Source of the DNA: Defluviitaleaceae bacterium
Lineage (GTDB): Bacteria > Bacillota > Clostridia > Lachnospirales > WRAX01
Reading direction: 5' to 3'
Assembly (NCBI GenBank): GCA_009780415.1
Contig: WRAC01000024.1
Coordinates: 1-38,909 of the forward strand
Length of the DNA: 38,909 nt
Shown here: positions 6,573 through 23,847 of the stretch, piece after piece
Layout: each line of letters opens with the position of its first letter
How positions within the stretch are numbered: the stretch's first letter is position 1
The notes under the pieces: model-generated
What the model was told of the DNA's origin: nothing
Database searches by the model: none
The model's input: the letters and a program-made list of their open reading frames with translations, nothing else
Translations under genes and position numbers: made by a program

Positions 6573-6600
6573 TAAGGGGGCACCTTCGGGCGTCCCTTCT
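6573..6600 (+). promoter_or_regulatory. hairpin in the hutU leader
   Basis: Between the MITE-like element and hutU the sequence AAGGGGGCACC - TTCG - GGCGTCCCTT can fold into a stem with a UUCG-type tetraloop, one mismatch and one bulge. No T run follows, so it is not a standard terminator. It ends six bases before the GGAGGG ribosome site of hutU and may affect mRNA stability or translation. Confidence 0.35.
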
Positions 6601-6616
6601 AAAATTGGAGGGATTT

Positions 6617-8632: not shown

Positions 8633-9390
8633 GCGGGTCTAAACCGATGGAGAATGTAAATGATTACATTGAGCATGTAAAATCGCCTTGGGGCAGGATG
8701 TTTTATGATTTGCTTTTTATTCAGCTTGACATTCCGGAGACACCAAGGTTAAAAATCCTCGACTTCGGCTCGGGCCTTGGCGTTACGGCGGATTATTACG
8801 CCGCTTGGCATGATGTGACCGCGGTTGAGTATAACGCGGAAATGATTGTAAACAGGTTTAGGGAAAATTCGTATACGCAGATTCATGGCGCCGTTGAGCA
8901 TATAGCAGCTTTTTCCAGTAATACTTTTGATGTGGTTATTTGTCATAATGTTTTGGAATATATCAAGGATCAGGAGCCTGTTTTCGCGGAACTTCTAAGG
9001 GTGCTGAAACCGGGCGGGACTCTGTCTGTTGTGAAGCATAACCAGTACGGGAAGGTTTTTCACAGCGCGGTTTTTTGGAATGATCCCGGAAAAGCCTTGT
9101 CACTTCTTAAAAACAGTACCAGCGGGAATATTAATTTTATAGGGACGCAATACATTTATTCTTATAAGGACGCGGCGGCGTGGTCTGAAAAATATGGCGG
9201 GACAATCAAAAGGGTCTTTGGCATGAGGGCGTTTTGGGCGCTTGGACAGAATAGTGACGTAAAATATAACGATGATTGGTACCGGAATATGCTTGAGCTG
9301 GAACGCCAGGCGGCTGATATTGATGAGTATAAAAATGCTGCGTATCATAATCACATATTGATTGAAAAAAGGAGTTGGACCGATGAGTAA
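8629..9390 (+). CDS. class I SAM-dependent methyltransferase inside the hut operon
   Basis: 253 residues with a Rossmann-type methyltransferase core: motif I LDFGSGLGVTADYY (about 41-54), an acidic residue ending strand two (VEYN), then VVICHNVLEYI and LRVLKPGGTLSVVKH (motifs typical of the methyltransferase-11 family). The substrate is unknown. It overlaps hutU by ATGA and ftcD by eight bases, so it is translated as part of the histidine operon although no histidine degradation step needs a methyl transfer. It could modify a small metabolite or simply have been captured by the operon. Confidence 0.8.
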   Translation: MSGSKPMENVNDYIEHVKSPWGRMFYDLLFIQLDIPETPRLKILDFGSGLGVTADYYAAWHDVTAVEYNAEMIVNRFRENSYTQIHGAVEHIAAFSSNTFDVVICHNVLEYIKDQEPVFAELLRVLKPGGTLSVVKHNQYGKVFHSAVFWNDPGKALSLLKNSTSGNINFIGTQYIYSYKDAAAWSEKYGGTIKRVFGMRAFWALGQNSDVKYNDDWYRNMLELERQAADIDEYKNAAYHNHILIEKRSWTDE

Positions 9391-10276
9391 ACTTGTTGAA
9401 TGCGTACCTAATTTCAGCGAGGGCAGGAATTTGGACATAGTTGAGAAAATTGCAAGTGAGTTTCGGGGCAAGGAAGGCGTGAAGCTGCTGGATTATTCAA
9501 GCGATAAGGACCATAACCGCTCCGTGGTGACCGTGATTGGCGCGCCCGATGCGGTTTCCGCGGCTATGGTTAATGCGGCGGGGGTTGCGGTGGAGCTTAT
9601 CGACTTGACAAAGCATAAGGGCGAGCATCCCCGCATGGGCGCTGTTGATGTGATCCCGTTTATTCCCGTGCGCGGGATGAAGATGCAGGAATGCGTTGCG
9701 CTGTCAAAAACCGTGGCGAAGGAGATTTATGATAAATACGGTTTGCCAAGCTATTTATATGAAAACTCCGCGTCTTCGGAAATGCGCAGGAACCTTGCCG
9801 ATGTGCGCAGGGGTGAATTCGAGGGGCTTGCGGCAAAGATGCAAAAACCCGGCTGGAAGCCCGATTTCGGTGATGCGCCGCACCCGACGGCAGGGGCAGC
9901 CGCTGTAAGCGCGCGTGAATTTTTGATCGCGTTTAATGTAAATCTGGGAACCTCCGATTTAGCAATTGCCGTAAAGATATCAAATGTAATCCGGCATTCC
10001 GGCGGCGGGCTTCGCTTTGTGAAGGCTATGGGCGTTGACCTCGCCGAGCGTAATATCGCGCAAGTTTCAATGAACCTGACTGACTACAGAAGAACTTCGA
10101 TCTACCGCGTTTTTGAACTTATTAAAATCGAAGCAGCGCGATATGGCGTGCCGGTTATCGGCAGCGAGGTTATCGGGCTTTTGCCCATGCAGGCGCTGGT
10201 TGATACGGCGGAATATTATTTGCAAATAGAGGGCTTCAAAAGCAGCCAGATAATTGAGGCGGGCCTTTTGGAATGA
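9383..10276 (+). CDS. ftcD: glutamate formimidoyltransferase
   Basis: Transfers the formimino group of N-formimino-L-glutamate to tetrahydrofolate, giving glutamate and 5-formimino-THF. The start at 9383 follows AAAAAGGAG; an upstream in-frame ATG at 9362 lies inside the methyltransferase gene and leaves no ribosome site. The 297-residue protein has the CVPNFSEGRN signature (residues 7-16) and His82 in HKGEHPRMGAVDVIPF, the position of the catalytic His in the mammalian enzyme. It corresponds to the N-terminal half of the mammalian bifunctional protein; the cyclodeaminase half is the separate gene at 11508. It overlaps hutI by ATGA. Confidence 0.95.
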   Translation: MSKLVECVPNFSEGRNLDIVEKIASEFRGKEGVKLLDYSSDKDHNRSVVTVIGAPDAVSAAMVNAAGVAVELIDLTKHKGEHPRMGAVDVIPFIPVRGMKMQECVALSKTVAKEIYDKYGLPSYLYENSASSEMRRNLADVRRGEFEGLAAKMQKPGWKPDFGDAPHPTAGAAAVSAREFLIAFNVNLGTSDLAIAVKISNVIRHSGGGLRFVKAMGVDLAERNIAQVSMNLTDYRRTSIYRVFELIKIEAARYGVPVIGSEVIGLLPMQALVDTAEYYLQIEGFKSSQIIEAGLLE

Positions 10277-11514
10277 ACAGATACACCGTAAAATCCAGAA
10301 ATATATGTTCGTTTGACGATAATGGGAAAATGCGCGTTATTGACGGTTTTATAGTTATTGGCGACGATAAAATAGAGGATGTTACGGCGCGTGTGCCGGA
10401 CGGGCTTGATATATTGGACGCGTCGGATATGACCGTAACTCCGGGGCTTATCGACGCGCACACGCATCTCGTTCACGCCGGGTCGCGCGAAAACGAGATG
10501 AGCATGAAGCAAAACGGCGTATCGTACTTGGAAATACTTAAAAACGGCGGCGGGATATTAAGCACCGTAAATAAAACCCGCGCCGCCTCAAAAGATGAAC
10601 TGAAGGCAAAGGCTTTGAAGAGCTTGGACATCATGCTGTCTCACGGCACTACCACAGTTGAGGCCAAGAGCGGCTACGGGCTGGATTTTGAAACCGAAAT
10701 CAAGCAGCTTGAAATTGCGCGTGAATTGAACGATTGCCATCCCGTCAGCATTGTTTCAACATATATGGGCGCGCATGCCATACCCGCAGAGTATAGGGAA
10801 AACCGGCGGGGGTATGTGGATTTGATGATTAATAAAGTAATGCCTTATACGGCGGAAAACGGACTGGCTGAGTTTTTCGATGTTTTTTGCGAGGACGGCG
10901 CGTTTACGCTTGACGAGACGGTTGAGTTGTTTGAAGCGGCGCAAAAACTGGGTTTTGGGTTGAAGCTGCACGCAGACGAAATTGTACCGATGGGCGGCGC
11001 GGAGCTTGCGGCGCGGTTTGCGGCTGCGTCGGCGGAGCATCTGCTGGCCGCGTCCGACGCCGGGATTGCTGTCCTTGCGGAAGCCGGCGTTACGGCGGTG
11101 CTTTTGCCCGCCACCGCATTTTATCTGATGAAGGGGCATTACGCCAGGGCACGGGAGATGATAAAAGCGGGAATGCGCGTGGCTCTGGCGACGGATTATA
11201 ACCCGGGGAGCTGTCCAACGGAGAACATGCAGGCTGTAATGACTTTCGCCGCGTTTGGTATGGGGCTGACAACCGAGGAAATTTTAAGGGGAATGACATT
11301 AAACGCGGCTTACGCGATTAACAGGCAGAAATCCATCGGCAACATCAAAGCCGGAATGAACGCGGATTTGGTAATTTTTGACGCGCCTAACCCGGATTAT
11401 ATAATTTATCATTTTGGTATAAACCATGTTGATATGGTAATTAAAAATGGAAAGACCGTTTTTAACCACAAAAATCACAAAAAAACACAAAAAAAGGATG
11501 GCAAGTTATGTTAA
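10273..11514 (+). CDS. hutI: imidazolonepropionase
   Basis: Third step of histidine degradation: hydrolyses 4-imidazolone-5-propanoate to N-formiminoglutamate. It is an amidohydrolase-fold metal enzyme of 413 residues. DAHTHLVHAG (61-70) holds metal ligands His63 and His65; EAKSGYGLD, the LHADE segment and ATDYNPGS carry further ligand and substrate residues. The ATG overlaps the ftcD stop. The C-terminus has an unusual Lys/His-rich tail (NHKNHKKTQKK) encoded by an A-rich repeat also seen near 23951; family members I recall end close to the preceding VIKNGKTVF. Confidence 0.95.
   Translation: MNRYTVKSRNICSFDDNGKMRVIDGFIVIGDDKIEDVTARVPDGLDILDASDMTVTPGLIDAHTHLVHAGSRENEMSMKQNGVSYLEILKNGGGILSTVNKTRAASKDELKAKALKSLDIMLSHGTTTVEAKSGYGLDFETEIKQLEIARELNDCHPVSIVSTYMGAHAIPAEYRENRRGYVDLMINKVMPYTAENGLAEFFDVFCEDGAFTLDETVELFEAAQKLGFGLKLHADEIVPMGGAELAARFAAASAEHLLAASDAGIAVLAEAGVTAVLLPATAFYLMKGHYARAREMIKAGMRVALATDYNPGSCPTENMQAVMTFAAFGMGLTTEEILRGMTLNAAYAINRQKSIGNIKAGMNADLVIFDAPNPDYIIYHFGINHVDMVIKNGKTVFNHKNHKKTQKKDGKLC
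11471..11497. repeat. dispersed A-rich short repeat, copy 1
   Basis: AAAATCACAAAAAAACAC followed by an A run. It matches 23951-23975 at about 24 of 25 positions. It codes for the extra C-terminal tail of hutI and ends at the ribosome site of fchA. Low complexity makes chance similarity possible. Confidence 0.4.
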
Positions 11515-12140
11515 TGGATATGAGCCTGCGTGATTTTTGCGCGCTGCTGGCTTCGAAGGAACCCGCGCCGGGTGGCGGCAGCGTTTCCGCGTTTGCCGGG
11601 GTTTTGGCGGCTTCGCTTGGGCAGATGGCTGTGAATTTGACCGTTGGGAAGAAGGTTTTTGAGTCCGCCGATGATATTGTTAAGGAAGCGGTTAATGAGG
11701 CGGGCGCGGAGCTTGCCGGGCTGGGAGAACGGCTGACAAAGCTTGTGGACGATGACACCGAGGCTTTTAACGCTTATATGACGTCATTTAAGATGCCAAA
11801 AGCCTCGGATGAGGAAAAAAATGCGCGGAAAAAGGCTTTATCCGCGGCTGAGGAAGTGATTGTAAGCGTCCCGCTCGCCACATTTACGGCTTGTTCGGAG
11901 ATTTTTCCGCATTTGGCAACACTTGCCGTTTATGGGAACAAAAATTGCATATCGGATGTCGCCGTTGCCGCGAATATGGCTCTTTCCGGCATGGAAGGCG
12001 GTATGTACAATGTTCTTACTAATAAAATGCATGATGGAAAACGCACTGAGTATACGGAAAAAATGACGCGGATGCTGAATGAGGCCGCCGTCTGCCGAGA
12101 TAAAATAATTAACACCGCCAAGGAGATTTTTAATGAGTGA
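11508..12140 (+). CDS. fchA: formiminotetrahydrofolate cyclodeaminase
   Basis: Converts 5-formimino-THF to 5,10-methenyl-THF and ammonia, releasing the one-carbon unit from the ftcD product into folate metabolism. The all-helical 210-residue protein shows the family start LRDFCALLASKEPAPGGGSVSAF (seen in pieces, residues 7-29) with the PAPGGGS loop. The start at 11508 follows AAAAAGGATG and overlaps the hutI stop by seven bases; the downstream in-frame ATGs (MLMDM) are alternatives. Its 3' end overlaps hutH by eight bases. Confidence 0.93.
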   Translation: MLMDMSLRDFCALLASKEPAPGGGSVSAFAGVLAASLGQMAVNLTVGKKVFESADDIVKEAVNEAGAELAGLGERLTKLVDDDTEAFNAYMTSFKMPKASDEEKNARKKALSAAEEVIVSVPLATFTACSEIFPHLATLAVYGNKNCISDVAVAANMALSGMEGGMYNVLTNKMHDGKRTEYTEKMTRMLNEAAVCRDKIINTAKEIFNE

Positions 12141-13647
12141 ATTGGTTTTGACCGGGCACAGCCTGCGAATTGCCGATGTTATAAACGTTTCATTCCACCG
12201 CCGGCCCGTGGCGGTATCAGATGAGGCAAGCGCCGCCGTCGCGGCTTCCCATAATATAGTGCGCGATAAAATAAACAAGCGCGAAGTTGTTTACGGTATT
12301 ACAACCGGGTTCGGCAACCTTGCAAATGTCGTTATCGACCCCGGACAATCCGCCCTTTTACAGAAAAACCTTATCGTAAGCCATGCCTGCGGAGTTGGTG
12401 AACCCTTCCCGACGGAGGTTGTACGCGGTATAATGCTGCTTCGCGCAAACGCGCTGGCAAACGGTTTTTCCGGCGTTTCCCCCCGATGTGTGAGTATTCT
12501 TACTGACATGCTTAACGCGGGCGTACATCCCATTGTGCCTATGAAAGGTTCCCTTGGCGCAAGCGGCGACCTCTGCCATTTGGCACATGTGGCGCTGGTT
12601 ATGATGGGCATGGGCGAAGCGGAATTGAACGGGATGCGCATAAGCGGCGCGGATGCCATGGAAAAGGCCGGGATAACAGTCCTTGAGCCAACGGGCAAAG
12701 ACGGGCTGGGGCTGATAAATGGCACGCAAGCCATGTCGGCGATAGGTGTTTTTTGCGTTTACGATGCCATTATGCTGCTTGAGCTGGCGAATGCCTGCGC
12801 CGCGCTCACGCTGGAAGCCCTGGGCGGGAGGATAGACGCTTTTGACGAAAAACTTCACAAGGCGCGCCCTCATCCCGGGCAAATCATTTGTGCCGGGGAA
12901 CTGCGCCGCCTGCTAAACGGCAGCAAAAATACCGGCAGCGCGCGCCGTGTACAGGACGCCTACACCCTGCGCTGTGTGCCGCAAGTCCACGGAGCGTCGT
13001 GGGACGCGATAAATTACGCTAAAAATGTGCTGACCATCGAGATCAATTCCGTTACCGACAATCCCATTGTTTTCCCGGATAGCGGTGAGGGTCAGATTAT
13101 ATCCGGCGGGAACTTCCATGGACAGCCGCTTGCGCTGGCCCTCGATTTCCTTGCCATTGCCGTTGCCGAGCTTGCCAGCATTTCCGAGCGCCGCACGGAA
13201 CGGCTTGTAAATCCGCAGCTTAGCGGCTTGCCGGGATTTTTAACGCAGAACCCCGGCGTAAATTCCGGCATGATGATACCGCAGTATACGGCAGCATGTC
13301 TTGTTTCGGAAAATAAAGTGCTGGCGCATCCGGCAAGCGTGGACTCCATCCCGTCCTCCGCGAATCAGGAGGACCATGTGTCGATGGGCGCCATCTCAGC
13401 GCGTAAATGCAGCGAAATTATCAACAACGTTAAATATGTGCTTGCCATAGAGCTGATGGCCGCCGCCCAGGCCGTTGATATCGGCGGTTCGGTTAACGGG
13501 CTTGGCGATTATACATCCAAGCTTTACCGCGAGATACGCAAAGCCGTGCCGCGGCTTGACGACGACCGCGTTCTGTCACCCGATATCGAAAAGATTGCGG
13601 CGTTGATTGACGACGGGGCATTGAACAGGGTTATTGAGGAGGATTAG
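12133..13647 (+). CDS. hutH: histidine ammonia-lyase
   Basis: First step of histidine degradation: non-oxidative deamination to urocanate. The 504 residues carry the Ala-Ser-Gly triad (143-145, in GSLGASGDLCHL) that cyclises into the MIO electrophile, the catalytic Tyr54 in YGITTGFG, and SVTDNPIVF. Although it acts first, it is the last gene of the operon. AAGGAG inside the end of fchA is its ribosome site. The stop lies five bases from the convergent spoVAE stop and no terminator hairpin fits between them. Confidence 0.96.
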   Translation: MSELVLTGHSLRIADVINVSFHRRPVAVSDEASAAVAASHNIVRDKINKREVVYGITTGFGNLANVVIDPGQSALLQKNLIVSHACGVGEPFPTEVVRGIMLLRANALANGFSGVSPRCVSILTDMLNAGVHPIVPMKGSLGASGDLCHLAHVALVMMGMGEAELNGMRISGADAMEKAGITVLEPTGKDGLGLINGTQAMSAIGVFCVYDAIMLLELANACAALTLEALGGRIDAFDEKLHKARPHPGQIICAGELRRLLNGSKNTGSARRVQDAYTLRCVPQVHGASWDAINYAKNVLTIEINSVTDNPIVFPDSGEGQIISGGNFHGQPLALALDFLAIAVAELASISERRTERLVNPQLSGLPGFLTQNPGVNSGMMIPQYTAACLVSENKVLAHPASVDSIPSSANQEDHVSMGAISARKCSEIINNVKYVLAIELMAAAQAVDIGGSVNGLGDYTSKLYREIRKAVPRLDDDRVLSPDIEKIAALIDDGALNRVIEED

Positions 13648-13652
13648 CGATT

Positions 13653-14009
13653 TTACTCTTTTGCCTTGGGATTAAAAGCCACCGCGGCCAAAAGCCCGAA
13701 CAGCACCGCAGCCGAGATACCGGCGGCCGTCATTTTCAATCCGCCGGTGAGGACGCCCAGCAGCCCGGATCTATTTACCTCTTCTTTTACTCCCCTTGCC
13801 AGTAGGTAACCGAAGCCCGGCAGCGGTATTGTCGCGCCCGCGCCCGCGAACTCCGCAAACCGCCCGTAAACACCGATACCCCCGAGCAGGCAGCCGATTA
13901 CGACGAACATAACCAAAATCCGTGCGGGTGTGAGTTTTGTTTTATCAATTAATATCTGGCCGATGACGCAAATCAACCCGCCGATAAGAAACGCTTTTAA
14001 AAAAATCAT
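13653..14009 (-). CDS. spoVAE: stage V sporulation protein AE
   Basis: 118-residue integral membrane protein with about four hydrophobic segments, part of the SpoVA complex that moves Ca-dipicolinic acid across the inner forespore membrane. It resembles the SpoVAE (AEb) type by size, position and the segments GGLICVIGQ and GAGATIPLPGFG. These two segments recur in SpoVAC (GGLICVFAQ, GAGAIVPITGF), indicating the two are paralogues. AGGAGG overlaps its upstream neighbour's stop region. Last gene of the operon, convergent with hutH. Confidence 0.9.
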   Translation of the reverse strand: MIFLKAFLIGGLICVIGQILIDKTKLTPARILVMFVVIGCLLGGIGVYGRFAEFAGAGATIPLPGFGYLLARGVKEEVNRSGLLGVLTGGLKMTAAGISAAVLFGLLAAVAFNPKAKE

Positions 14010-14019
14010 TTTTACCCTC

Positions 14020-15039
14020 CTAGCTAATATTCTCTATGGCAACGGCGTGACAGATACCCGGAATTGATTCGCCCTGCTGGGCCGATGTGGTTGACAGAAG
14101 CGCTCCGGTAGGCAGCAGCAGCAGCTTACCGATTGCGCTGTTTTGCATCTGGTTATACAAATATCCCGCGAAGGTTACGGCGGAACAGGCGCAGCCGCTT
14201 CCGCCGCTGTGCGTATCCTGTGTTTCGCGGTCGAATATCTTAATGCCGCAGTCCGTGTAGTTGGATGATATATGATATCCCTGCTCCTGCGTTATCTTTA
14301 ACACCAGCTCATGCCCAATGTATCCCAAATCGCCTGTAATAATCAAATCATAATAGTCCGGATTTCTGCCCGTGTCCTTAAAATGCGTGATTAATGTATC
14401 CGCGGCAGATGGAGCCATTGCCGCTCCCATATTATTAATATCCGTAATACCCATATCCACAACCTTCCCCGCCGTATAGGCCGTTACGCAAATACCCTTT
14501 CCGCCGGTTTTGTTGGATAGGACAGCCGCGCCGTTGCCGGTTACTGTCCATGTGGAGGATGGCGGGCGCTGGCTGCCGAATTCGAGGGGGAAGCGGAATT
14601 GCTTTTCCGCGGCGCAGAAATGGCTGGACGCGGAGGCTATGACATTGTTGTAGAATCCGCCGTCTACCAGCATTGAGCCCACGCCCATTGCCAGGCCGAA
14701 GGTGGAACATGCCCCGAACATGCCGATGAACGGGCGGTTTAAATCGCGTACGCCGAAAGATGTGCCTATTATTTGATTTAATAGGTCGCCTGCCAGAATG
14801 CAGTCGATTTCCGTATCTAAAAGTCCCGACTTCTGGATGGCGAGTTTTATTGCGTCCGAAACAAATTTGCTTTCCGCCTGCTCCCATGACTTGCAATCCC
14901 ATAAAACATCTTCAACAACCCGGTCAAAATATTTACCGATAGGCCCCTGCCCTTCCTTCGGCCCGACAATGGAGGCCGCCGCGATAATTGACACGGGCTG
15001 CTGAAAGAAAACGGTTTGGTTTCCATGTTTTTTAGACAT
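14020..15039 (-). CDS. spoVAD: stage V sporulation protein AD
   Basis: Thiolase-fold protein of 339 residues; in Bacillus it binds dipicolinic acid and lies on the inner membrane of the forespore as part of the SpoVA channel. Recognisable segments are GPKEGQGPIG near the N-terminus, FGACSTFGLAMGVGSMLVDGG in the middle (seen in pieces; the Cys sits at the thiolase active-site position), DTHSGGSGCACSA and LLLPTGALLSTTS. AGGGGG precedes the start. Ten bases separate it from spoVAE and three from spoVAC. Confidence 0.95.
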   Translation of the reverse strand: MSKKHGNQTVFFQQPVSIIAAASIVGPKEGQGPIGKYFDRVVEDVLWDCKSWEQAESKFVSDAIKLAIQKSGLLDTEIDCILAGDLLNQIIGTSFGVRDLNRPFIGMFGACSTFGLAMGVGSMLVDGGFYNNVIASASSHFCAAEKQFRFPLEFGSQRPPSSTWTVTGNGAAVLSNKTGGKGICVTAYTAGKVVDMGITDINNMGAAMAPSAADTLITHFKDTGRNPDYYDLIITGDLGYIGHELVLKITQEQGYHISSNYTDCGIKIFDRETQDTHSGGSGCACSAVTFAGYLYNQMQNSAIGKLLLLPTGALLSTTSAQQGESIPGICHAVAIENIS

Positions 15040-15042
15040 TTC

Positions 15043-15501
15043 TTATCCCCCTATTCTGTTAAAAAGCCAATAGATTATGCCTATAACCCATGATGTGGCA
15101 AGCCCATAGACAATAACAGGCCCGGCGATTACAAACATTTTCGCGCCGACTCCGAAAATGAAGCCCTCTTTCTTAAACTCCACAGCCGGTGCCGCGACGG
15201 CGTTCGCGAAGCCCGTTATGGGAACAATCGCCCCCGCGCCGCCAAACTTCGCCAGATTGTCGAACACGCCGATGCCTGTCAGCAACGATGCCAAAAATAT
15301 AAGGCTTACGGACGAAAGGGTGGAGGCAATGTCTTTTTCTACGCCCATACGCAAGAGCCATTGGATTATCGCCTGCGCGAAAACGCAGATAAGCCCGCCG
15401 ATTGCAAAGGCCTTGCAGCAATTGGTAAAAATATTACTGTTTGGCGATGATTTGTCTACCATTTGTGAGAAGCGTTCCTTGGTGATATTTGAGTTGTCCA
15501 T
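15043..15501 (-). CDS. spoVAC: stage V sporulation protein AC
   Basis: 152-residue membrane protein, known in Bacillus as a mechanosensitive channel component needed for dipicolinic acid uptake and release. A hydrophilic N-terminus of about 25 residues precedes a conserved CCKAFAIGGLICV start and four or five hydrophobic segments, with GGAGAIVPITGFANAV as the family signature. AAGGAG lies before the ATG. It shares repeated motifs with spoVAE. Confidence 0.95.
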   Translation of the reverse strand: MDNSNITKERFSQMVDKSSPNSNIFTNCCKAFAIGGLICVFAQAIIQWLLRMGVEKDIASTLSSVSLIFLASLLTGIGVFDNLAKFGGAGAIVPITGFANAVAAPAVEFKKEGFIFGVGAKMFVIAGPVIVYGLATSWVIGIIYWLFNRIGG

Positions 15502-15511
15502 TTTAATCTCC

Positions 15512-15949
15512 TTAGTTTGTTTTTATAAAACCCGGAACAATAAAATATATCAAAGCCCCCGCGGCTTTTCCGGCGGCTAAAGCAATAATAAAGAATCCAA
15601 GGCCTTTTTGCAAACCGGCGCGGCGGCCCAGTACGGGCAGTACGTTCAGAATTTCGGCAAGGCATACGGCAAGGCATCCGAGAAAAACGCCGTATGTAAG
15701 GCCTGTTATGATGTTGCCGAGCATCCCAATGGGAATTTTATAATTAAACGCAAGGCTTCCCGCGCCGAATATCCCGCCCGCTATGATGCATTCCTCATAA
15801 AACTTAATATATCTCTGCGTTCCGGATTTACGCGCAAGCCTTGGGATTATGCCCACAACGGCGATAAAGGCGAACACCGCGCCTGAAACGACAAGCCCCG
15901 CGCATAGGCCCGTAATTATTAAAGCGCCTGTTTTAAGAACTTCCATCAT
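15512..15949 (-). CDS. spoVAB: stage V sporulation protein AB
   Basis: 145-residue membrane protein with about four hydrophobic helices, matching SpoVAB in position and in segments such as GLCAGLVVSGAVFAFIAVVGIIPR (in part), KFYEECIIAGGIFG and LAEILNVLPVLGRR. Its start overlaps the end of spoVAA by 17 bases, with GGGGGAGA before a double ATG; the second ATG (15946) is an equally good start. Confidence 0.9.
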   Translation of the reverse strand: MMEVLKTGALIITGLCAGLVVSGAVFAFIAVVGIIPRLARKSGTQRYIKFYEECIIAGGIFGAGSLAFNYKIPIGMLGNIITGLTYGVFLGCLAVCLAEILNVLPVLGRRAGLQKGLGFFIIALAAGKAAGALIYFIVPGFIKTN

Positions 15950-16571
15950 TCTCTCCCCCGTATTTGTTTTTTCTTGCGGCTAAAAAGTCTACAAGTGTCT
16001 CCGTTACGGTCTTGTCATAATCGGACATTTCGATCTCGATAGGCGACGGGTCCTCCTTAATCTTCCTTCCTCCCAAATGGTTGAAAAAGACAATAATACC
16101 GCCGGCTATCCCGATGACATATGAAATTTGGATTGCGCGCGGTTTGTCGGTATCCTGGCCTGTGAACATTTTGTGATAGGCCTTGAAAACCTTGGGTATC
16201 TCGGCGTCGTTGTGGAAACTCATAATTGCCGTAGCCGCGCCTATTGCGAACACAAGGCCGATCAATGTGATTTTCAACCATTTCCAAAACGGTATATCTT
16301 TCTGCTCATGGGCGTGGTATAAAACGATGGTATCCATTTCGCCCACATTATTTACGGTATGTCCGGGAAGGCTCTGGTCTATGGCTTTTATTACATCAAT
16401 AACGGATACCAGGTGCATTTTTTTCTTGTCACCTTCCGTTGCGAAAAGCTTCACCCTTTCAACGCGTTCCTTAATCTCAGGCGGTGCTTGTACCTCGCAG
16501 ACATGACCGACGGTGATGTGGCTTTCACCGGACACGGCTGCTTTTTTTGCGGGTTTTACATATATATCCAT
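15933..16571 (-). CDS. spoVAA: stage V sporulation protein AA
   Basis: First gene of the dipicolinic acid transport operon. An N-terminal soluble part of about 100 residues (starting MDIYVKP and containing VSVIDVIKAID) is followed by two membrane segments (about 107-125 and 150-168) and a short charged tail, as in SpoVAA. The start at 16571 is chosen because GGAGG sits seven bases upstream; an ATG at 16589 overlaps that ribosome site. A sigma-G-like promoter lies 25-55 nt upstream. Confidence 0.9.
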   Translation of the reverse strand: MDIYVKPAKKAAVSGESHITVGHVCEVQAPPEIKERVERVKLFATEGDKKKMHLVSVIDVIKAIDQSLPGHTVNNVGEMDTIVLYHAHEQKDIPFWKWLKITLIGLVFAIGAATAIMSFHNDAEIPKVFKAYHKMFTGQDTDKPRAIQISYVIGIAGGIIVFFNHLGGRKIKEDPSPIEIEMSDYDKTVTETLVDFLAARKNKYGGENDGSS

Positions 16572-16595
16572 TGGATAGCCTCCATTCAATAGCTT

Positions 16596-16689: not shown

Positions 16690-17328
16690 TTATTTATTTG
16701 TTCGGTTTGCTGTTGCCAGAGCCGCCAGCTCAAATACTTCCTTTTGCGTCATTTGGTCGGTAAGCTCGCCGCTCCCCTTGCCCATTTCTGCGAGCCGCTC
16801 GGCTACCGTGTCATATGCATCGGGTGTAAAATATGTCTCCGAGCACATAACGGATAATAACGCGCCGTAATCGAAGGGGCGGTACAGGACATTGTGCGCG
16901 CCGTTTTTAACAGACTCCAGCACCAGCACCGGAAGCCTTGTGGACGTAACCATTATTATCTTGCTTCCGCGGTCCTTTTTCAAATCGGTCAGCGCTTCAA
17001 TGCCGTCCAGTTCAGGCATCGTTACGTTTAAAAAAACATAATCAAAATGCTCGTCACCATTAAATATCTTAACGGCTTCGTAACCGTTCTCCGCGCGCGC
17101 GCTTACGTTAATCCCGGCCCTTGCCAGCCATTCCTCCATCATCAGGCGCATCATGACCGAATCGTCAACAACCATGGCAGTCCGCCCGACAAGGAGTTTT
17201 CTCTTTTTATTATACTTAGCATGTAAATCTGTCATCGCCTCTGAAAGCAGCTCAACCTCGGCGGTTCCCCAATCCCGCGCAAGCTGTGACATAATTTCCT
17301 GCCATGCTCCCGTTGTATGCGCCGACAT
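16690..17328 (-). CDS. degenerate response-regulator receiver protein (Asn at phosphoacceptor site)
   Basis: 212-residue protein: about 48 N-terminal helical residues, then a CheY-like receiver (about 50-165), then a short helical tail with no DNA-binding domain that I recognise. The acidic pair VVDDS (Asp55, Asp56) and Thr128 are kept. The position of the phosphorylated Asp, before xxMPELDG, is Asn101 (codon AAC), and the conserved Lys before PF is Arg150. Phosphorylation in the usual way is therefore unlikely; it may work as a constitutive or protein-protein switch. The start at 17328 has GGGAGGGG four bases upstream. It is monocistronic, with its own promoter and terminator. Confidence 0.85.
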   Translation of the reverse strand: MSAHTTGAWQEIMSQLARDWGTAEVELLSEAMTDLHAKYNKKRKLLVGRTAMVVDDSVMMRLMMEEWLARAGINVSARAENGYEAVKIFNGDEHFDYVFLNVTMPELDGIEALTDLKKDRGSKIIMVTSTRLPVLVLESVKNGAHNVLYRPFDYGALLSVMCSETYFTPDAYDTVAERLAEMGKGSGELTDQMTQKEVFELAALATANRTNK

Positions 17329-17367
17329 ATTACCCCTCCCTGTCAATGTATCATAATCTCTGTATAC

Positions 17368-17399: not shown

Positions 17400-18236
17400 C
17401 TAAAAACGATAAATCCCGGCGGCGTTGCCCCAAAAAACATCGGGCCAGACATTCTGCGGAATAATGGCCTTGCACATCTCTGTATACGGGCCAACCGGCG
17501 CAAGGGGCCAATCCGTACCGAAGATGACTTTTTTGTAGTTGTTAAGGAAAAGGAAGCCTTGTCTGAAGTAACCGTTTATCAGCGGTTCGCTTACCATCCT
17601 TTCGCATTCCGAAGCGCCGCCCACCGCAAGCCCCGAGATATCCACATAAACATTGGCGTGTTTATAAGCTATCTCACAGGCTTCCATAACCCAGGGGAAA
17701 CCCACATGGCAGATAATTATCTTCATTTCCGGATACATATGCGCCAGTTTATCCACATGCAGCGGGCGTGAATATTCGATCAGGCCTCCCTTGAAATATG
17801 TGTCGCCGCTGTGGATCGCAACGGGTAAGCCATATTCCGCGGCAATCCTATATACAGGCTCATAAACCTTGGCGTAGATATGCTTATGATAATATCCGGC
17901 GTAAATTTTAAACCCCGCAATGTCACTTCGGGTTTTAACGGCCTTTTCGATTTCCGCGATGCTTTGTCCGCCCATTTTATGCGGGTTTATCCCCATACAG
18001 ACCCGCATATTGTGCATTGGCGTATCCAGCTCGGCGAACATAGGCGTTTGCGCCATTTTATCCGGCGTTTTACCCGGCGCGGTTTCGGTAATCCCCATAC
18101 ATACGCTGCCGGTAACACCGGCTTCGGCGTACTCCTTCGCAAGCCCGGCGGAGGAATAATCAACGCCGGAATCCGCGGCCCCCTGGCGAAACGCCTGTAT
18201 ATTTGAGAAATGCATATGCGCGTCGATTATATTCAT
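17400..18236 (-). CDS. amidohydrolase-2 family metal-dependent hydrolase/decarboxylase
   Basis: 278-residue TIM-barrel protein of the amidohydrolase superfamily, closest by pattern to the ACMSD-like amidohydrolase-2 group. Metal and active-site residues appear in the expected order: DAHMH (5-9), FKIYAGYYHK (109-118), AIHSGD with His142, ICHVG with His177, and FGTDWP with Asp242. Substrate unknown; the family includes hydrolases and decarboxylases. AGGAG precedes the ATG by seven bases. Fourth and last gene of the HD/lipoprotein/GNAT operon, ten bases after the fusion gene. No terminator is visible after it. Confidence 0.82.
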   Translation of the reverse strand: MNIIDAHMHFSNIQAFRQGAADSGVDYSSAGLAKEYAEAGVTGSVCMGITETAPGKTPDKMAQTPMFAELDTPMHNMRVCMGINPHKMGGQSIAEIEKAVKTRSDIAGFKIYAGYYHKHIYAKVYEPVYRIAAEYGLPVAIHSGDTYFKGGLIEYSRPLHVDKLAHMYPEMKIIICHVGFPWVMEACEIAYKHANVYVDISGLAVGGASECERMVSEPLINGYFRQGFLFLNNYKKVIFGTDWPLAPVGPYTEMCKAIIPQNVWPDVFWGNAAGIYRF

Positions 18237-18246
18237 ATACAGTCTC

Positions 18247-21200
18247 CTAGAATGTTATACGTTCCAAAGCGGCTAACTCCGGCGCGGATAAATCCTTGTC
18301 AGTCAGGATATGGAACATCGGCGCGGTAAGCAGTTCGCCGCCGTTTTCAAGGCGCAGGCTAATATCACGCGTAAACTCGGACGAGTTGATACTATTCCCG
18401 GAATAGCACCATGTCCTCCTGTCCGCAAGGTTCGGCACGTAATGCAGCTTGCTGTTTTCCGCGGATAGCTTAATAAATTGGACGTCATTGGTACGGAAAT
18501 CATTTCCCCCCAGCATAAAACGCCGCTGTTTTCCCTTATGTTTAATTTCCGCCTCACGTTCGCCAAATCCGCTTCCGAAGGCAGGGAAAAACACCTCATA
18601 CGCTTCCAATTTCAGATATCCTCCGGTGCTGTTAGCAAACCGCGTAAACGCGCATAAAACAGGCACACCCGGCAATGTCAGGTAAAACTGTTCATAAACA
18701 AGCCCCTTGTATTCCTTGTGGTTAACTACGTCAACGCGGGTTTTTATCCCCTGCCAGTTATTACCGAAGCAATCCGTCACGGCGGTGAATTCCGCCGACA
18801 TCTTTTCCTTTAAAGCCGCCATGCAATTCATTTTATTAAAAACGACATACATGCCGCCCACAAAGGGGTTCCACCACGAGTAAGGCTCCAGTTTCGGATA
18901 TTTGCTCATCAGCCACTCTGTTCCGTAACTGTCTTGCAACGAAAATAAACCAGCGTAATGATTCGGGTCGGATTTAAAAGTCAGCAAGCCATTGGATACG
19001 CTGAGTACGCCATCATTTTTTATTGTTTTTATACCGCCGCCAGGGAAGAAAACCGCTTGTCTCCTTTCAGAAAGGTATGAAGGGAAGGACATCCGCGCAT
19101 TCACCACGCCGATGCCGCCATTCAAACGGGTTTTATCGGGTCTAACCGTAAAATTATTCTCCGCAACCCGTTCATCTTTCGGGTTTATTTGAACACACGG
19201 CTCGAAAAACCCGTCATGCGCCGGAACTATTTCAACCTTGCCTTCATATGACATATTGCGGTTGTTTAACAGTGCGGCCGTAAACTCATCGCCGCAGATA
19301 AACGGATTACGCCCGTTTACGTTTAACTCTAGTAAATCTTCCGCGGGTTCCGTGCGCGCGCTGTAAACGCCGCGCGCGAAATCCCGGAACGACATATAAT
19401 CCCTGAAACCGCCGATTGAGCAGATAACAGGCGGTGTCTCAAATACTTTTCCGGGTTGAATATCACCGAATTTATGCTCTAACTCCACAACGTCATTCCA
19501 TTTGAAAACGGGCTTCAGCTCCGGCGACCAGCATGTGCCGACGGGTAAAGCGGGGTCATTTTCAAACAGCCAGTTTTCTTCAAACAAGCCGGGATCTGCG
19601 GCTGCGATACCTTGATCGCCCGCGTCGGACGACATCACGGTCCGCCCTCCGTAGCGGTAGACGGCGTTGTGATCGACGCCGGCACACACTATTTCACTGA
19701 GGAATACGGCTTTCGGCGCGTTTCCCTCGTTTTCAAGGCGGTTTACGCGCGTAACAACACCCCCGGCCGACAAGGTATAAATCATGGTCATCATAATACC
19801 GGCCTGTTTTTCGGAACGGTAAGAAAGCTCCATTGCGATATCCGCGCCGGTTTCGTATGTCTTAACGTCTATAGGCACGGCCAGATTGAACTCGTCGTCA
19901 TAAGGCTTGCCCAGTTTACAGGGCAGGAATTCAATTTGTGTCATGCTTTCATTACCTAGAAGATATTTTACCTCGGTGCGGTTGCTGTCTTTAAGCGTAT
20001 AAAGCTCAAAAAGCCCGTTTACCAATCCGTAAGCGTCCTCATTATCATAAGCGAAACGCCCCGAAAGGCCTTTGCTTATGATATCCGTCGGCATGGTGAA
20101 CTGCGCCGCTTGACCGTTTTCAAGGGTTATGGCGCAAGGTATCCCAAGCGTTACATGCCCTGTTTTCAAGACCTCCGCCGTTAATTTAACGCTTGCTTTA
20201 CCCAACGCGCACGTTTCAACCGTTTTATCGGAATAATCAAATCTGATATAATCATTTTGTGGCAATGTAAATTGAATGCCAGCCGCGGACAACAGCGCGC
20301 TTTTAACTGTAATAAACGCGTCAAAACGCTTCCCGGGGATGGCAAGGCCGCACTCCGCGTCGAATGCCGCCGTAAGGGGCGCCTTAGCCTCAATGCCCGC
20401 GCCCATTTCCAACTCCAAGCCATTTACCGTGACATTGGCTAATAAACACGGATGCTTGCGGAAGGGGTCTTGTTTATGCGCGGGCTTGTTTACGCGGAAT
20501 GCCGATATGTACTCCGCCTCATCTTTAACCGTATCCGCGCATTCAAAATCCCATTCAATAACGCCGTCGTTTATGCTTCTTATTTTCACGCCAAGAGGCT
20601 TACCGCTCTTGTTTTTAACAATCAGCTTCGCTTTATAATCAAAACCATAGGCAAGCTGATGGTTTTCCGCGCCCAGCTCAACGGTATAATCATCTGTTTC
20701 AACACGGCAAATCCGCCTGCCGGATTTTTCAAATGTTACCTCAAGCCATTCGCCTTCTTTAGCCCATTTATATGTGAAAAACTCAAAATCAGCGTCAAAC
20801 ATGCCGTCGGGAATAATCTCCAGGCTTCTGGCGGAGTCGGCGTACCAGTCCGCTTTTGCGAAGAAGGGCTTTAACAAATCCTGCGCCAGTACCGTAGGGA
20901 TGAAATTCGACAGATGCGTGGTCTCCGAGTTGTCCTCCCACATAAAGCCGCATTTTTTATACAGCGGCACGGCCTTCACGTTTCCGGGCCAGGTGTGCAG
21001 CTCAAGGCGCGGGAACCCCACCTCCATTGTGCGCTCCACACACAGCAGCACAAGGGCTTTCCCCAGCTTTTTAGATTGATAGTCGGGCCGGACGTTTAAC
21101 ACATGGATATAAAGCGCGTCCGCGTCCTTATAATACCGGGCCAGGCTGCAAAGCCCGGCGACCTCGTTTCCGTCCAACGCCACGTAAACATTGTAATATG

Positions 21201-21363
21201 AGCCTGTGCGGAAAAAGTCTATTTGAGCCTGCTCTGTAGCCAAATCACTGCCGCCGCCCCAAAATTCCGCGCTTCTGTTCCACATCTCCGCAAGCCCGGC
21301 GGCGTAACATTCTTCATATTCAACGATTTTGATACCGTTTTCAAGAGTTTTATATACTTTCAT
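18247..21363 (-). CDS. 1038-residue fusion: N-terminal GNAT acetyltransferase and large beta-rich C-terminal region
   Basis: Residues 1-165 are a GNAT acyltransferase: LYIHVLNVRPDYQSKKLGKAL (in part, about 84-104) is motif A with the acetyl-CoA loop, and AVPLYKKCGFMWE is motif B. The remaining 870 residues have no membrane segment or signal peptide. They alternate short beta-type stretches with Gly/Asn turns, repeatedly resembling beta-sandwich and carbohydrate-processing folds (for example GGMYVVFNK, LPGVPVLCAFTRF), but I recognise no catalytic motif. AGGAGG precedes the start. It is co-transcribed with a sugar-binding-type lipoprotein and an amidohydrolase. A role in modifying an amino sugar or glycan-derived substrate is a guess from context. 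Confidence 0.7.
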   Translation of the reverse strand: MKVYKTLENGIKIVEYEECYAAGLAEMWNRSAEFWGGGSDLATEQAQIDFFRTGSYYNVYVALDGNEVAGLCSLARYYKDADALYIHVLNVRPDYQSKKLGKALVLLCVERTMEVGFPRLELHTWPGNVKAVPLYKKCGFMWEDNSETTHLSNFIPTVLAQDLLKPFFAKADWYADSARSLEIIPDGMFDADFEFFTYKWAKEGEWLEVTFEKSGRRICRVETDDYTVELGAENHQLAYGFDYKAKLIVKNKSGKPLGVKIRSINDGVIEWDFECADTVKDEAEYISAFRVNKPAHKQDPFRKHPCLLANVTVNGLELEMGAGIEAKAPLTAAFDAECGLAIPGKRFDAFITVKSALLSAAGIQFTLPQNDYIRFDYSDKTVETCALGKASVKLTAEVLKTGHVTLGIPCAITLENGQAAQFTMPTDIISKGLSGRFAYDNEDAYGLVNGLFELYTLKDSNRTEVKYLLGNESMTQIEFLPCKLGKPYDDEFNLAVPIDVKTYETGADIAMELSYRSEKQAGIMMTMIYTLSAGGVVTRVNRLENEGNAPKAVFLSEIVCAGVDHNAVYRYGGRTVMSSDAGDQGIAAADPGLFEENWLFENDPALPVGTCWSPELKPVFKWNDVVELEHKFGDIQPGKVFETPPVICSIGGFRDYMSFRDFARGVYSARTEPAEDLLELNVNGRNPFICGDEFTAALLNNRNMSYEGKVEIVPAHDGFFEPCVQINPKDERVAENNFTVRPDKTRLNGGIGVVNARMSFPSYLSERRQAVFFPGGGIKTIKNDGVLSVSNGLLTFKSDPNHYAGLFSLQDSYGTEWLMSKYPKLEPYSWWNPFVGGMYVVFNKMNCMAALKEKMSAEFTAVTDCFGNNWQGIKTRVDVVNHKEYKGLVYEQFYLTLPGVPVLCAFTRFANSTGGYLKLEAYEVFFPAFGSGFGEREAEIKHKGKQRRFMLGGNDFRTNDVQFIKLSAENSKLHYVPNLADRRTWCYSGNSINSSEFTRDISLRLENGGELLTAPMFHILTDKDLSAPELAALERITF

Positions 21364-21377
21364 TGCTCCTCCTATTG

Positions 21378-22703
21378 TTAATTCGCATTAATCATTGCAG
21401 GGCGGCTGTACAGCCATTCCAGGCGTTTAAAATCATCGGGCGCAAGCAAATCCTCAAAGGCCGCGGCGCGGCTTGAAAGCGGCGGCAAGCCCAGCCGCTC
21501 GCGCTCCCTTTCCTCTTCCAGTCTATCCGCAAGGCCATAATATGTAATTATAAGCTTAATATAATCACTTGCGTCCGCTTTTGCCAGAGCGCCCTGTTCA
21601 CCCGCTGCCAGAGCGAAAACCCGCGCGTCGGAAGCGGTTGCCCTATAATTGCTTGTCAGCATGTTTTCAAGGGCCGCGAATCCCGTGTTTATTTTAATAT
21701 TCGGGCCCCAGGGGTAAGGAACGATGCCAATTTCCATGCCCGCTTCCAGCATAACCGCCAAGTCATCCGCGTTTCCCGCCGTAATCACCGCCGTGCCGGG
21801 ACCATCGGGGGAGTGCAAAATATTATATACTTCCAATCTGTTGATAAATTCCTTTGTTTGCAAAATCGAAGGCGTATTTTGCACGGACTGTCCGGTTTCA
21901 GGGTGATAAAGGAAGCCGCCGTTCGAATAAACCATATTTTCCCATAAATCCGCCGATTCCACCGAAATCGCGTAATATCCCGGCAGAAGGAGATTGTTAA
22001 GAATCAGGCAATAATCGTAAAAATCGTTCCAGTCCCATTCCCCGCGGTCAAAAAGGTTTCCCGGCATTTCACCAATCCCGGCGCCGCGGATCAAGGCTTT
22101 GTCGTAAATTAGGAATGAATCCGCAACCAGCGGCGTTACGGAGAAACCATACAACCTGCCATCCGTCCAACCCGCTGCGTAATATGCCTCGGGCAGGCCG
22201 GAATTAAGCACCGCGTCCGTTATATCCTCGACCAGCCCGGCGCGCGCAAGCTGTTCCATGCCAGCCCTGTCCACCAAAATAATATCGGCCGCCGGCTCAC
22301 CCTCGAACATGCGTTCCGCCAGTTCTTCCGCCAGAGTTACGATGCTTCTGCCGCCGATAGCGTCGAACGCCATGGTTATGTTAAAAAGCATTTCAATCTC
22401 ATAATGGCGTCTTTGCCATATTTCCGCGTATTCACCATATAACACGGCGGCGGCTTGCGGATTTGGGACGCCGCCAAAACCGATAACCGCACCGCCAAGG
22501 TCAACCACCGGGGTGATTTCAGGGGGTTCGGGGGGTTCGGGCGGCAATGGGGGTTGCGTTGGGGTTGGGGTTGGGCTGGGGATTGGTTCTTCGGTATGGA
22601 TTAGGGTAATAATGGGAGCAGGTTCGTCGGGCCTTCTGCAAGACGACACAAAAAGACAAGCAAAAATCGCCGCGGCATAAAAAAGGAACATCCTTTTTCC
22701 CAT
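21378..22703 (-). CDS. ABC-type extracellular solute-binding lipoprotein (sugar family)
   Basis: 441-residue secreted lipoprotein. The signal peptide MGKRMFLFYAAAIFACLFV ends in a lipobox VSSC with Cys22. A Pro/Thr-rich linker (about 35-65) tethers the binding domain, which has features of family-1 solute-binding proteins: DIILVDRAGMEQLARAGLVEDIT, then WTDGRLYGFSVTPLVADSFLIYDK and WDWNDFYDYC. The start at 22703 follows AGAGGGG; an ATG at 22721 overlaps that site. No permease or ATPase gene is adjacent, so it is an orphan binding protein here, or shares a transporter encoded elsewhere. Confidence 0.85.
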   Translation of the reverse strand: MGKRMFLFYAAAIFACLFVSSCRRPDEPAPIITLIHTEEPIPSPTPTPTQPPLPPEPPEPPEITPVVDLGGAVIGFGGVPNPQAAAVLYGEYAEIWQRRHYEIEMLFNITMAFDAIGGRSIVTLAEELAERMFEGEPAADIILVDRAGMEQLARAGLVEDITDAVLNSGLPEAYYAAGWTDGRLYGFSVTPLVADSFLIYDKALIRGAGIGEMPGNLFDRGEWDWNDFYDYCLILNNLLLPGYYAISVESADLWENMVYSNGGFLYHPETGQSVQNTPSILQTKEFINRLEVYNILHSPDGPGTAVITAGNADDLAVMLEAGMEIGIVPYPWGPNIKINTGFAALENMLTSNYRATASDARVFALAAGEQGALAKADASDYIKLIITYYGLADRLEEERERERLGLPPLSSRAAAFEDLLAPDDFKRLEWLYSRPAMINAN

Positions 22704-22721
22704 GTTTACCCCTCTTTTCAA

Positions 22722-23339
22722 TTACCATTCAAACGTATTATTCACAATATTATCCAACAATGTGTAAACATTACAATTTGACAGAATATCAAAATACTGT
22801 TTCAAATCAAAATACATTTTCCATTTATTAATTATTTTCTCGCAAAGCCCATACCGCATAACCACATTAACCAGTCTTTTTTCCATCAAAACCGCCCCTT
22901 GCGCGTATGACAGAGCGTCACAAAGCTGTATCAATTTATCATAATCAGTATAAGATTTTGATTTAAGGAAATTATCAATAAATTCAAAATCATCTTGCGA
23001 ACAGTCTATATCCCCGACGTATTCGGCTATATCCTGCGTAGGAAATGAATGCGTCAAGCAAATCTCAGCCGCATCGGGATACCCTTCTTTCATTAAATAA
23101 TTATAACCGTCCAAAACATGCCTGATATGTGAATAACCTTCACGCCGCCCGATGTCATGGAGCAGCCCGAGTACATAGGCGGCATCCGCATCCATCTCCG
23201 GGCAACGCTCCGCGATGGCCTTGGCTATTCCGGCAGCGACTTTTGAATGCTCAATCCAAGGTCCCGGATTCATTTTTCCGGAGCTTTCCATCATTGAAAC
23301 AGCTATCTGTATCGAAGGGATATTTACGAACCTCACCAT
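22722..23339 (-). CDS. HD-domain phosphohydrolase-type protein
   Basis: 205 residues with an HD metal-binding domain: His31 in EHSK, the doublet His61-Asp62 in LLHDIGR, His97 and Asp141, the usual order for HD hydrolases acting on nucleotides or phosphate esters. The C-terminal 60 residues are helical and unassigned. The ribosome site (AAAAGG) is very close to the ATG, so a start at an internal Met (residue 16 or 17) is possible. It is the first gene of the operon, only 12 bases after the rnpB terminator; I see no clear promoter of its own. Confidence 0.8.
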   Translation of the reverse strand: MVRFVNIPSIQIAVSMMESSGKMNPGPWIEHSKVAAGIAKAIAERCPEMDADAAYVLGLLHDIGRREGYSHIRHVLDGYNYLMKEGYPDAAEICLTHSFPTQDIAEYVGDIDCSQDDFEFIDNFLKSKSYTDYDKLIQLCDALSYAQGAVLMEKRLVNVVMRYGLCEKIINKWKMYFDLKQYFDILSNCNVYTLLDNIVNNTFEW

Positions 23340-23818: not shown

Positions 23819-23847
23819 ATTATACATGAAAACTTTTTTTGTGTCAA
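23819..23847 (-). promoter_or_regulatory. full-consensus sigma-A promoter of rnpB
   Basis: Minus strand TTGACA (23842-23847), exactly 17 nt, TATAAT (23819-23824): a perfect match at both elements. The start would be near 23812, coinciding with the 5' strand of helix P1. Confidence 0.9.

What the first reader, a model, noticed from the sequence alone, without database searches (positions are those of the whole stretch)
18247..21363. GNAT acetyltransferase fused to about 870 residues of beta-rich protein of unknown fold
GNAT enzymes are usually 150-200 residues. Here a clear acetyl-CoA motif A and motif B are followed by a very long beta-type region without signal peptide, membrane helix or catalytic motif that I can name. 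The fusion suggests a multi-step or scaffolded enzyme acting on the same substrate.
Basis: partly seen in the sequence, partly recalled or inferred. Interest (0 to 1): 0.6.

Follow-up and report, generated by a model that had tools for sequence, protein, structure and literature searches.

The report
Acetyltransferase welded to sugar-enzyme-like scaffold
A conserved but uncharacterised bacterial protein joins an acetyl-transferring enzyme to a long chain of folds known from sugar-processing enzymes and often sits next to a metal-dependent hydrolase gene, which points to a two-gene pathway whose substrate is still unknown.

Summary
In detail: one 1038-aa frame (18247-21363, minus strand) with a GNAT domain (residues 41-140) and about 870 beta-rich residues that match no Pfam, NCBIfam or PDB sequence profile. 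"Unknown fold" does not hold. AlphaFold models place two galactose-mutarotase-like super-sandwiches in the tail (residues 777-1038, Z 18.9; 433-676, Z 16.1), separated by Ig-like sandwiches. This is the layout of the non-catalytic beta part of LacZ and GH38 glycosidases. The mutarotase catalytic His is not conserved, so the tail is probably a binding or scaffold region.

The fusion is obligate. In 398 Bacillota genomes, all 26 strong matches to this GNAT subtype lie in 1012-1155-aa fused frames; the only two other matches are weak, unfused GNATs. An Amidohydro_2 metal-hydrolase gene with an invariant metal site follows directly in 22 of 47 family genes. The two co-occur in 13 of 398 genomes against 1.9 expected.

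Best reading: a dedicated acetyltransferase that holds a bulky, perhaps sugar-bearing amine on its beta scaffold and passes product to the hydrolase. The architecture is outside the five published bacterial GNAT types. The substrate is unknown.

The parts
18247..21363 (-). The fused protein (1038 aa): N-terminal GNAT plus about 870 residues of Ig-like and mutarotase-like domains
20884..21363 (-). GNAT domain, residues 1-160, the slowest-evolving part; near-invariant MWNxSxxxWGG, relaxed P-loop QSKKLG, Tyr135 in 45 of 46 rows (gap in the other)
20068..20814 (-). Two Ig-like beta-sandwiches, residues about 184-432 (boundaries from the model, approximate)
   Evidence: (profile similarity between the two)
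19336..20067 (-). First galactose-mutarotase-like super-sandwich, residues about 433-676
   Evidence: (3mwx Z 16.1, rmsd 3.0, 213 aligned)
19036..19335 (-). Third Ig-like sandwich, residues about 677-776 (least conserved)
   Evidence: (PL26 rows aligned from model residue 682/683)
18250..19035 (-). Second galactose-mutarotase-like super-sandwich, residues about 777-1038
   Evidence: 3mwx Z 18.9, rmsd 3.0, 232 aligned
17400..18236 (-). Partner gene: Amidohydro_2 metal-dependent hydrolase, 278 aa; its Shine-Dalgarno (AGGAGA, 18248-18243) overlaps the TAG stop of the fused gene
21378..22721 (-). Upstream gene in the same apparent unit: SBP_bac_1 solute-binding lipoprotein-like protein (not a conserved neighbour in the other loci)
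22722..23339 (-). Upstream HD-domain protein in the same apparent unit
16690..17346 (-). Downstream receiver-domain (response regulator) protein, last gene before a terminator-like site at 16680-16653

Best explanation
The gene encodes a cytosolic, single-purpose N-acetyltransferase of a conserved Bacillota family. The N-terminal GNAT takes acetyl from acetyl-CoA and transfers it to one particular amine acceptor, the same across the family. The long tail (Ig-Ig-mutarotase-like-Ig-mutarotase-like) is a non-catalytic binding and assembly platform of the kind that large glycosidases carry. It presents a bulky, probably sugar-bearing acceptor to the GNAT or holds the complex together. The acetylated product, or a companion of it, is then processed by the Amidohydro_2 metal-hydrolase encoded directly downstream. 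Shown here: domain make-up, obligate fusion, operon-type linkage, co-occurrence, intact hydrolase metal site. Inferred: acetylation activity, a common acceptor, a sugar in the acceptor, order of steps.
For: GNAT above the Pfam cut-off in the window and hit in 45 of 46 members; the other lacks its N-terminal part because of an in-frame TAG. The GNAT is the most conserved domain: mean pairwise identity 0.54, against 0.19-0.38 for the beta domains. The acceptor-side segment MWNxSxxxWGG and the motif-B block GNxxAxPxYKKxG are nearly invariant, as expected for one shared acceptor. Obligate fusion: 26 of 26 GNAT-subtype matches above 70 bits lie in 1012-1155-aa frames, and the next two matches (43 and 40 bits) are unfused; the most divergent, G341, is homologous through the tail too. 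Two mutarotase-like super-sandwiches by fold, supported by profile similarity between them (prob 50.6, P 1.6e-4; 13 of 15 domain pairs at 4.0 or less in local mode). Hydrolase directly downstream on the same strand in 22 of 47 family genes, gaps -47 to +59 nt, scattered over both large branches of the tree with at least 9 forced changes. Co-occurrence 13 of 398 genomes, 1.9 expected. In G743 (L112) the flanking genes are kept but the fused gene is a 160-aa remnant and the hydrolase is gone. In G494 (L102) the downstream neighbour is a different amidohydrolase (Amidohydro_3), overlapping by 1 nt.
Against: No activity or ligand is known. The P-loop deviates: the first glycine of R/Q-x-x-G-x-G/A is Lys in 35 of 46 rows, including the window. 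25 of 47 family genes do not have the hydrolase directly next to them, and 11 of 24 fused-gene genomes have no match to it at E 1e-30; conversely 19 of 32 hydrolase genomes lack the fused gene. So neither strictly needs the other. The sugar part rests on fold alone, and a shared fold shows no function. The models are of middling confidence (mean pLDDT 76.9 and 80.3; 13 and 12 sequences).
Confidence: 0.4

Rival explanations
1. The beta tail is an allosteric ligand sensor: binding of a sugar or other metabolite switches the GNAT on, and the GNAT acetylates a protein (perhaps the amidohydrolase or a metabolic enzyme) rather than a small molecule.
For: Ligand-sensing domains fused to GNATs are established: type III bacterial GNATs (cAMP, NADP, ACT domains) in PMC8556138 (passages read), and fungal Ngs1, where a catalytically dead GH3 domain binds GlcNAc and controls a GNAT (PMC5063960, passages read). 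The tail lacks conserved mutarotase His and evolves faster than the GNAT.
Against: The tail is C-terminal and about 870 residues, far larger than the 300-400-residue type III sensors; the near-invariant acceptor segment suggests one acceptor rather than several proteins.
Confidence: 0.25
2. A resistance or detoxification enzyme: the GNAT inactivates an amine antibiotic (streptothricin- or aminoglycoside-like) held by the beta tail.
For: The best PDB profile match is an entry named putative streptothricin acetyltransferase (3pp9, E 6.8e-9); weak sat4 matches in 13 of 46 members.
Against: The window's NCBIfam matches are generic GNAT similarities far below the curated cut-offs. Single copy in the window genome; found in 1 of 72,556 plasmid records and no phage record, unlike mobile resistance genes.
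Confidence: 0.12
3. A true two-activity enzyme: one super-sandwich is itself a catalyst (epimerase, lyase or hydrolase) acting on the same substrate as the GNAT.
For: Acidic and aromatic positions are conserved in the tail (E491 in 44, E596 in 41, D864 in 43, W870 in 45 of 46); some PL26 and GH enzymes with related domains are active (fold rows).
Against: No column with His in half or more of the rows after residue 304; the tail is the fastest-evolving part.
Confidence: 0.13
4. The tail is only an oligomerisation scaffold and the linkage to the amidohydrolase is a regulatory convenience without a shared pathway.
For: The LacZ and GH38 beta domains with the same fold act largely in assembly (general knowledge); linkage is not universal.
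Against: Recurring immediate adjacency, short gaps or overlaps, co-occurrence far above chance and co-loss in G743.
Confidence: 0.1

Closest known systems
[quoted passage not shown] PMC8556138, passages read)
   Same: N-terminal GNAT with a very large, presumably regulatory C-terminal part of similar size
   Different: Tail here is all-beta (Ig and mutarotase-like), no acyl-CoA synthetase profile match among the families shown
Galactose mutarotase / aldose 1-epimerase fold (B. subtilis 3mwx, 4bze)
   Same: Fold of both large beta domains (Z 18.9 and 16.1)
   Different: About 11-12% identity; catalytic His not conserved; embedded in a multi-domain chain
LacZ beta-galactosidase, GH38 alpha-mannosidase and PL26 lyase beta parts
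   Same: Ig-like sandwiches followed by a mutarotase-like super-sandwich
   Different: No TIM-barrel or other glycosidase catalytic domain in this chain; a GNAT stands at the N-terminus
Fungal Ngs1 (GH3-like GlcNAc-binding domain plus GNAT; PMC5063960, passages read)
   Same: Sugar-enzyme-like domain joined to a GNAT in one ~1000-aa protein
   Different: Different fold, opposite order, fungal, carries a putative nuclear localisation signal
Uncharacterised Amidohydro_2 protein BB4693 (3irs), for the partner gene
   Same: Nearest solved relative (phmmer E 3.4e-12)
   Different: Function of BB4693 not stated in its entry; only distant similarity

Membership tests
GNAT superfamily (residues 1-160) | Pfam profile above curated cut-off | tested here: met
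   PF00583 60.8 bits against 20.7; also PF13508 and PF13673 above cut-off; PF00583 hit in 45 of 46 members at E up to 0.1
GNAT superfamily (residues 1-160) | P-loop R/Q-x-x-G-x-G/A (as given in PMC8556138) | tested here: inconclusive
   Window reads QSKKLG: Q and last G kept, middle G is K; K in 35, G in 10, gap in 1 of 46 rows
GNAT superfamily (residues 1-160) | Conserved motif-B Tyr as general acid (role recalled, not from a call) | tested here: met
   Tyr135 in 45 of 46 rows, gap in the one truncated row
Published bacterial GNAT types I-V | Acyl-CoA synthetase domain (I, II), N-terminal sensor domain (III), GNAT only (IV), tandem GNAT (V) | tested here: not met
   GNAT starts the chain, one GNAT only, tail matches none of these families among the 25 of 28 shown (types)
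Galactose mutarotase / aldose 1-epimerase enzymes | Super-sandwich fold | tested here: met
   VIA Z 18.9 (232 aligned, 3.0 A) and Z 16.1 (213 aligned, 3.0 A) to 3mwx_A
Galactose mutarotase / aldose 1-epimerase enzymes | Conserved catalytic His (recalled) | tested here: not met
   No column with His in 50% or more of 46 rows after residue 304
GH2/LacZ or GH38 glycosidases | Catalytic TIM-barrel or alpha/beta domain in the chain | tested here: not met
   Secondary structure of residues 170-1038 is nearly all strand with only short helices
Amidohydro_2 (partner gene 17400-18236) | PF04909 above cut-off over the full length | tested here: met
   95.4 bits against 26.4, residues 4-278
Amidohydro_2 (partner gene 17400-18236) | Metal ligands HxH, H, H, D (roles recalled) | tested here: met
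   H7, H9, H142, H177, D242 (and K110) identical in 23 of 23

The most novel reading that the evidence does not exclude
A sixth architecture of bacterial GNAT: a cytosolic acetyltransferase whose activity or substrate delivery is governed by a tandem mutarotase-like sugar-binding chain, working with a dedicated amidohydrolase in a hitherto unknown acetylation-hydrolysis pathway for an amino-sugar conjugate in Bacillota.
Probability: 0.25. Interest if true: 0.7.

Novelty: new variant of a known kind. Interest (0 to 1): 0.5.

Why it matters
About 6% of sampled Bacillota genomes (25 of 398) carry this roughly 1000-residue protein, which is annotated in the one named record seen only as 'GNAT family N-acetyltransferase'. 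That name hides most of its length and its partner. Naming the family, its domains and its operon partner makes its substrate searchable, and it adds an architecture that the five-type scheme of bacterial GNATs does not include.

Tried and rejected
Sequence profiles for the tail: Pfam, NCBIfam and PDB profile searches gave nothing convincing. Weak hits (FixG_C in 6 of 46 members, best 0.002; GH38 C-terminal and CBM families in one member each) only agree with Ig-like and glycosidase-type sandwiches. Foldseek on the whole chain ranked a ciliary protein first and then LacZ, at TM 0.07-0.18, so it was not used as evidence of homology over the whole length. The viral structure library gave only low-TM hits, many of them Ig-rich phage proteins. 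No relative in IMG/VR contigs or phage records.

Substrate by context: relatives of the hydrolase away from the fused gene (20 further regions fetched; 19 of them showed the hydrolase in the neighbour table) share no informative operon; in three genomes of one genus it follows a gene that looks like purine-nucleoside phosphorylase (name recalled from sequence, not searched). Distant plasmid relatives of the hydrolase lie in a phosphonate cluster (Rhizobium) and beside a fructoselysine cluster (Enterococcus faecium). The five plasmid relatives share only 28-32% identity over half to two thirds of the query, too distant to use. Sugar-transport or glycosidase neighbours occur in some loci (window solute-binding protein; L107 transporter genes; L002 alpha-L-fucosidase; L110 sulfatase), but no control was run, so I do not count them as evidence.

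Literature: searches found no paper in the listings whose title or abstract describes this fusion or this gene pair. Only open-licence PMC full text was searched. Papers PMC8556138 and PMC5063960 were read in passages only; the others only as listings.

Not tested: presence outside Bacillota beyond the plasmid and phage collections; signal peptide by a predictor; Ig domains folded alone.

Full report
OBSERVATION. The window holds a single open frame of 1038 aa at 18247-21363 on the minus strand. Its start is preceded by AGGAGGAG. Pfam finds only GNAT families, at residues 41-140 in M1 numbering (repeated). The rest matches no Pfam family even at E 10. The window genome has one copy.

RELATIVES. 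A first scan of species genomes gave 12 loci, all matched over the full length at 35-39% and without stops; all 12 records are titled as Defluviitaleaceae or Oscillospiraceae MAGs. L006 and L010 come from one genome and are identical in the tree. With the tail alone (872 aa) as query, 24 of 398 genomes of the phylum and 16 of 196 of the order match at E 1e-3. In a class sample searched with the full-length protein, 87 of 291 matched, but only four genomes had long matches; the rest were ordinary GNATs. With the GNAT domain alone in 398 phylum genomes at E 1e-9, 28 matches appear. 26 of them score 72 bits or more and every one lies in an open frame of 1012-1155 aa; the two others score 43 and 40 bits and are unfused GNATs of 155-157 aa. 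One of the 26, G341, was missed by the tail query, but a profile of the tail finds it (E 3.4e-40). So in these samples this GNAT subtype was not found without the tail, and the tail not without the GNAT, except for pieces at contig ends (L016, L071), one frame split by TAG (L014/L080) and one remnant (L077/L112). Plasmids: 1 of 72,556 records, in Cytobacillus spongiae, annotated only as GNAT family N-acetyltransferase. Phage records: none. IMG/VR: none.

FOLD. AlphaFold2 on 13 sequences gave mean pLDDT 76.9, pTM 0.62: an alpha/beta GNAT followed by almost only strands. Structural alignment of the chains that Foldseek ranks highest matches residues 777-1023 to B. subtilis galactose mutarotase-like 3mwx (Z 18.9, 3.0 A, 232 aligned), then to the super-sandwiches of GH36, GH97, GH38 and PL26 enzymes. 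A second model of residues 297-677 (pLDDT 80.3, pTM 0.79; 12 sequences) matches 3mwx again at 435-654 (Z 16.1, 3.0 A, 213 aligned), followed by FpGalactosaminidase and Man38B. Profile-profile comparison inside the protein supports duplication: first against second super-sandwich prob 50.6, P 1.6e-4; first against second Ig domain prob 44.1, P 2.3e-4; the other 13 of 15 pairs at 4.0 or less in local mode. The Ig-like assignment of 184-432 and 677-776 rests on strand pattern, this duplication and the multi-domain rows, and is less certain than the super-sandwiches.

CONSERVATION. Over 46 sequences (46 of 47 family genes; L010, a duplicate of L006, was left out; alignment A2) the GNAT has mean pairwise identity 0.54 and 24% of columns at 90% or more. 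Ig1 has 0.38, Ig2 0.27, super-sandwich 1 0.26, Ig3 0.19, super-sandwich 2 0.29. The conserved segment MWNxSxxxWGG lies where GNATs usually contact the acceptor (recalled), so I infer a common acceptor. Tyr135 is present in 45 of 46. Against a textbook GNAT, the middle glycine of the P-loop is Lys in 35 of 46. In the tail, the only column with His in half or more of the rows is 304 (43 of 46), between the Ig domains; none lies in the super-sandwiches. A mutarotase-type active site is therefore not kept, though conserved acidic residues leave room for other chemistry.

PARTNER. In 47 loci examined (window, L001-L012, L079, L080-L112), 47 family genes of 880 aa or more were compared with their neighbours. 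One neighbour family stands out: a ~285-aa amidohydrolase, present in 23 loci and directly downstream on the same strand in 22, with gaps from -47 to +59 nt by longest-frame start calls. (An ABC-transporter ATPase group, a large and unspecific family, recurs in 15 loci at varying places.) In L007 one DUF2785 gene lies between. Two of the 22 are the identical copies L006 and L010. The hydrolase is Amidohydro_2 (PF04909, 6.8e-27), and H7, H9, K110, H142, H177 and D242 are identical in 23 of 23. In the window its Shine-Dalgarno AGGAGA overlaps the TAG stop of the fused gene, which suggests translational coupling. In the phylum draw, 32 of 398 genomes carry it at E 1e-30 (profile built from 21 of the 23 sequences); 13 of these are among the 24 genomes with the fused gene, 1.9 expected, Fisher P 6e-10. 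The genomes are related, so this P overstates the case. In 10 of the 13 the two are adjacent; in G437 they lie about 22 kb apart; in G345 and G383 they are far apart. Results against a strict pair: 11 of 24 fused-gene genomes have no such hydrolase, and 19 of 32 hydrolase genomes lack the fused gene. On a quick tree of 48 rows the adjacency label needs 12 changes (at least 9 forced; 500 shuffles average 16.1, 16 of 500 as low) and occurs in both large branches. It is old or repeatedly formed, and often lost. In G743 the flanking genes of the G823 and G837 loci are kept, but the fused gene is a 160-aa remnant and the hydrolase is absent. In G494 an amidohydrolase of another subfamily (Amidohydro_3, 2.7e-62) overlaps the end of the fused gene by one base.

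WINDOW CONTEXT. On the minus strand an HD-domain protein (22722-23339), a SBP_bac_1 solute-binding protein (21378-22721), the fused gene, the hydrolase and a receiver-domain protein (16690-17346) form a close row, ended by the strongest terminator-like site of the scan (16680-16653, 11 pairs) and followed by spoVA genes. Terminator-like sites as a class were not above shuffled expectation (12 against 14.3), so the unit is plausible rather than shown. A perfect sigma-70-like site lies at 23847-23819.

MECHANISM. Shown: the domains, the obligate fusion in the samples searched, the recurring gene pair, the intact hydrolase metal site. Inferred: acetyl transfer to a single amine acceptor; the tail as a binding or assembly platform, possibly for sugars, because the same fold series forms the non-catalytic part of large glycosidases; hand-over to the hydrolase. 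The main rival is a ligand-sensing tail that controls protein acetylation, for which type III GNATs and fungal Ngs1 are precedents. I give 0.4 to the first and 0.25 to the second.

NOVELTY. GNATs, mutarotase-like folds and amidohydrolases are all known. [quoted passage not shown] I rate it a new variant of a known kind.

Noticed in passing
L112 (G743) 8423-8905 with flanks: Same gene order as in G823 and G837, but the fused gene is a 160-aa remnant and the hydrolase is gone; looks like a joint loss.
   Followed up: partly
L080 (G211) 8118-11237: The fused gene is interrupted by one in-frame TAG within the GNAT domain; recent decay or an assembly error cannot be told apart.
   Followed up: no
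L102 (G494) 7967-12486: Fused gene overlaps by one base a 485-aa Amidohydro_3 gene, an amidohydrolase of another subfamily, with a DUF1028 gene upstream.
   Followed up: partly
L088 (G592) 6465-13033: Two different copies of the fused gene in a row before the hydrolase.
   Followed up: no
L107 12502-17490, L108 and L111 equivalents: A bacterial alpha-2-macroglobulin-like protein (A2M and MG2 domains, checked by Pfam in L107 only) lies two genes after the hydrolase in three genomes of one family.
   Followed up: partly
L159, L160, L161: In three genomes of one genus a solo relative of the hydrolase follows a gene that looks like purine-nucleoside phosphorylase; substrate link untested.
   Followed up: no
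window 13653-16589: A spoVA cluster (AA, AB, AC, AD and an AE-like gene) lies directly behind the unit on the same strand.
   Followed up: no
window 23819-23847: A perfect 12-of-12 sigma-70-like promoter on the minus strand, about 480 bases before the HD-domain gene.
   Followed up: no
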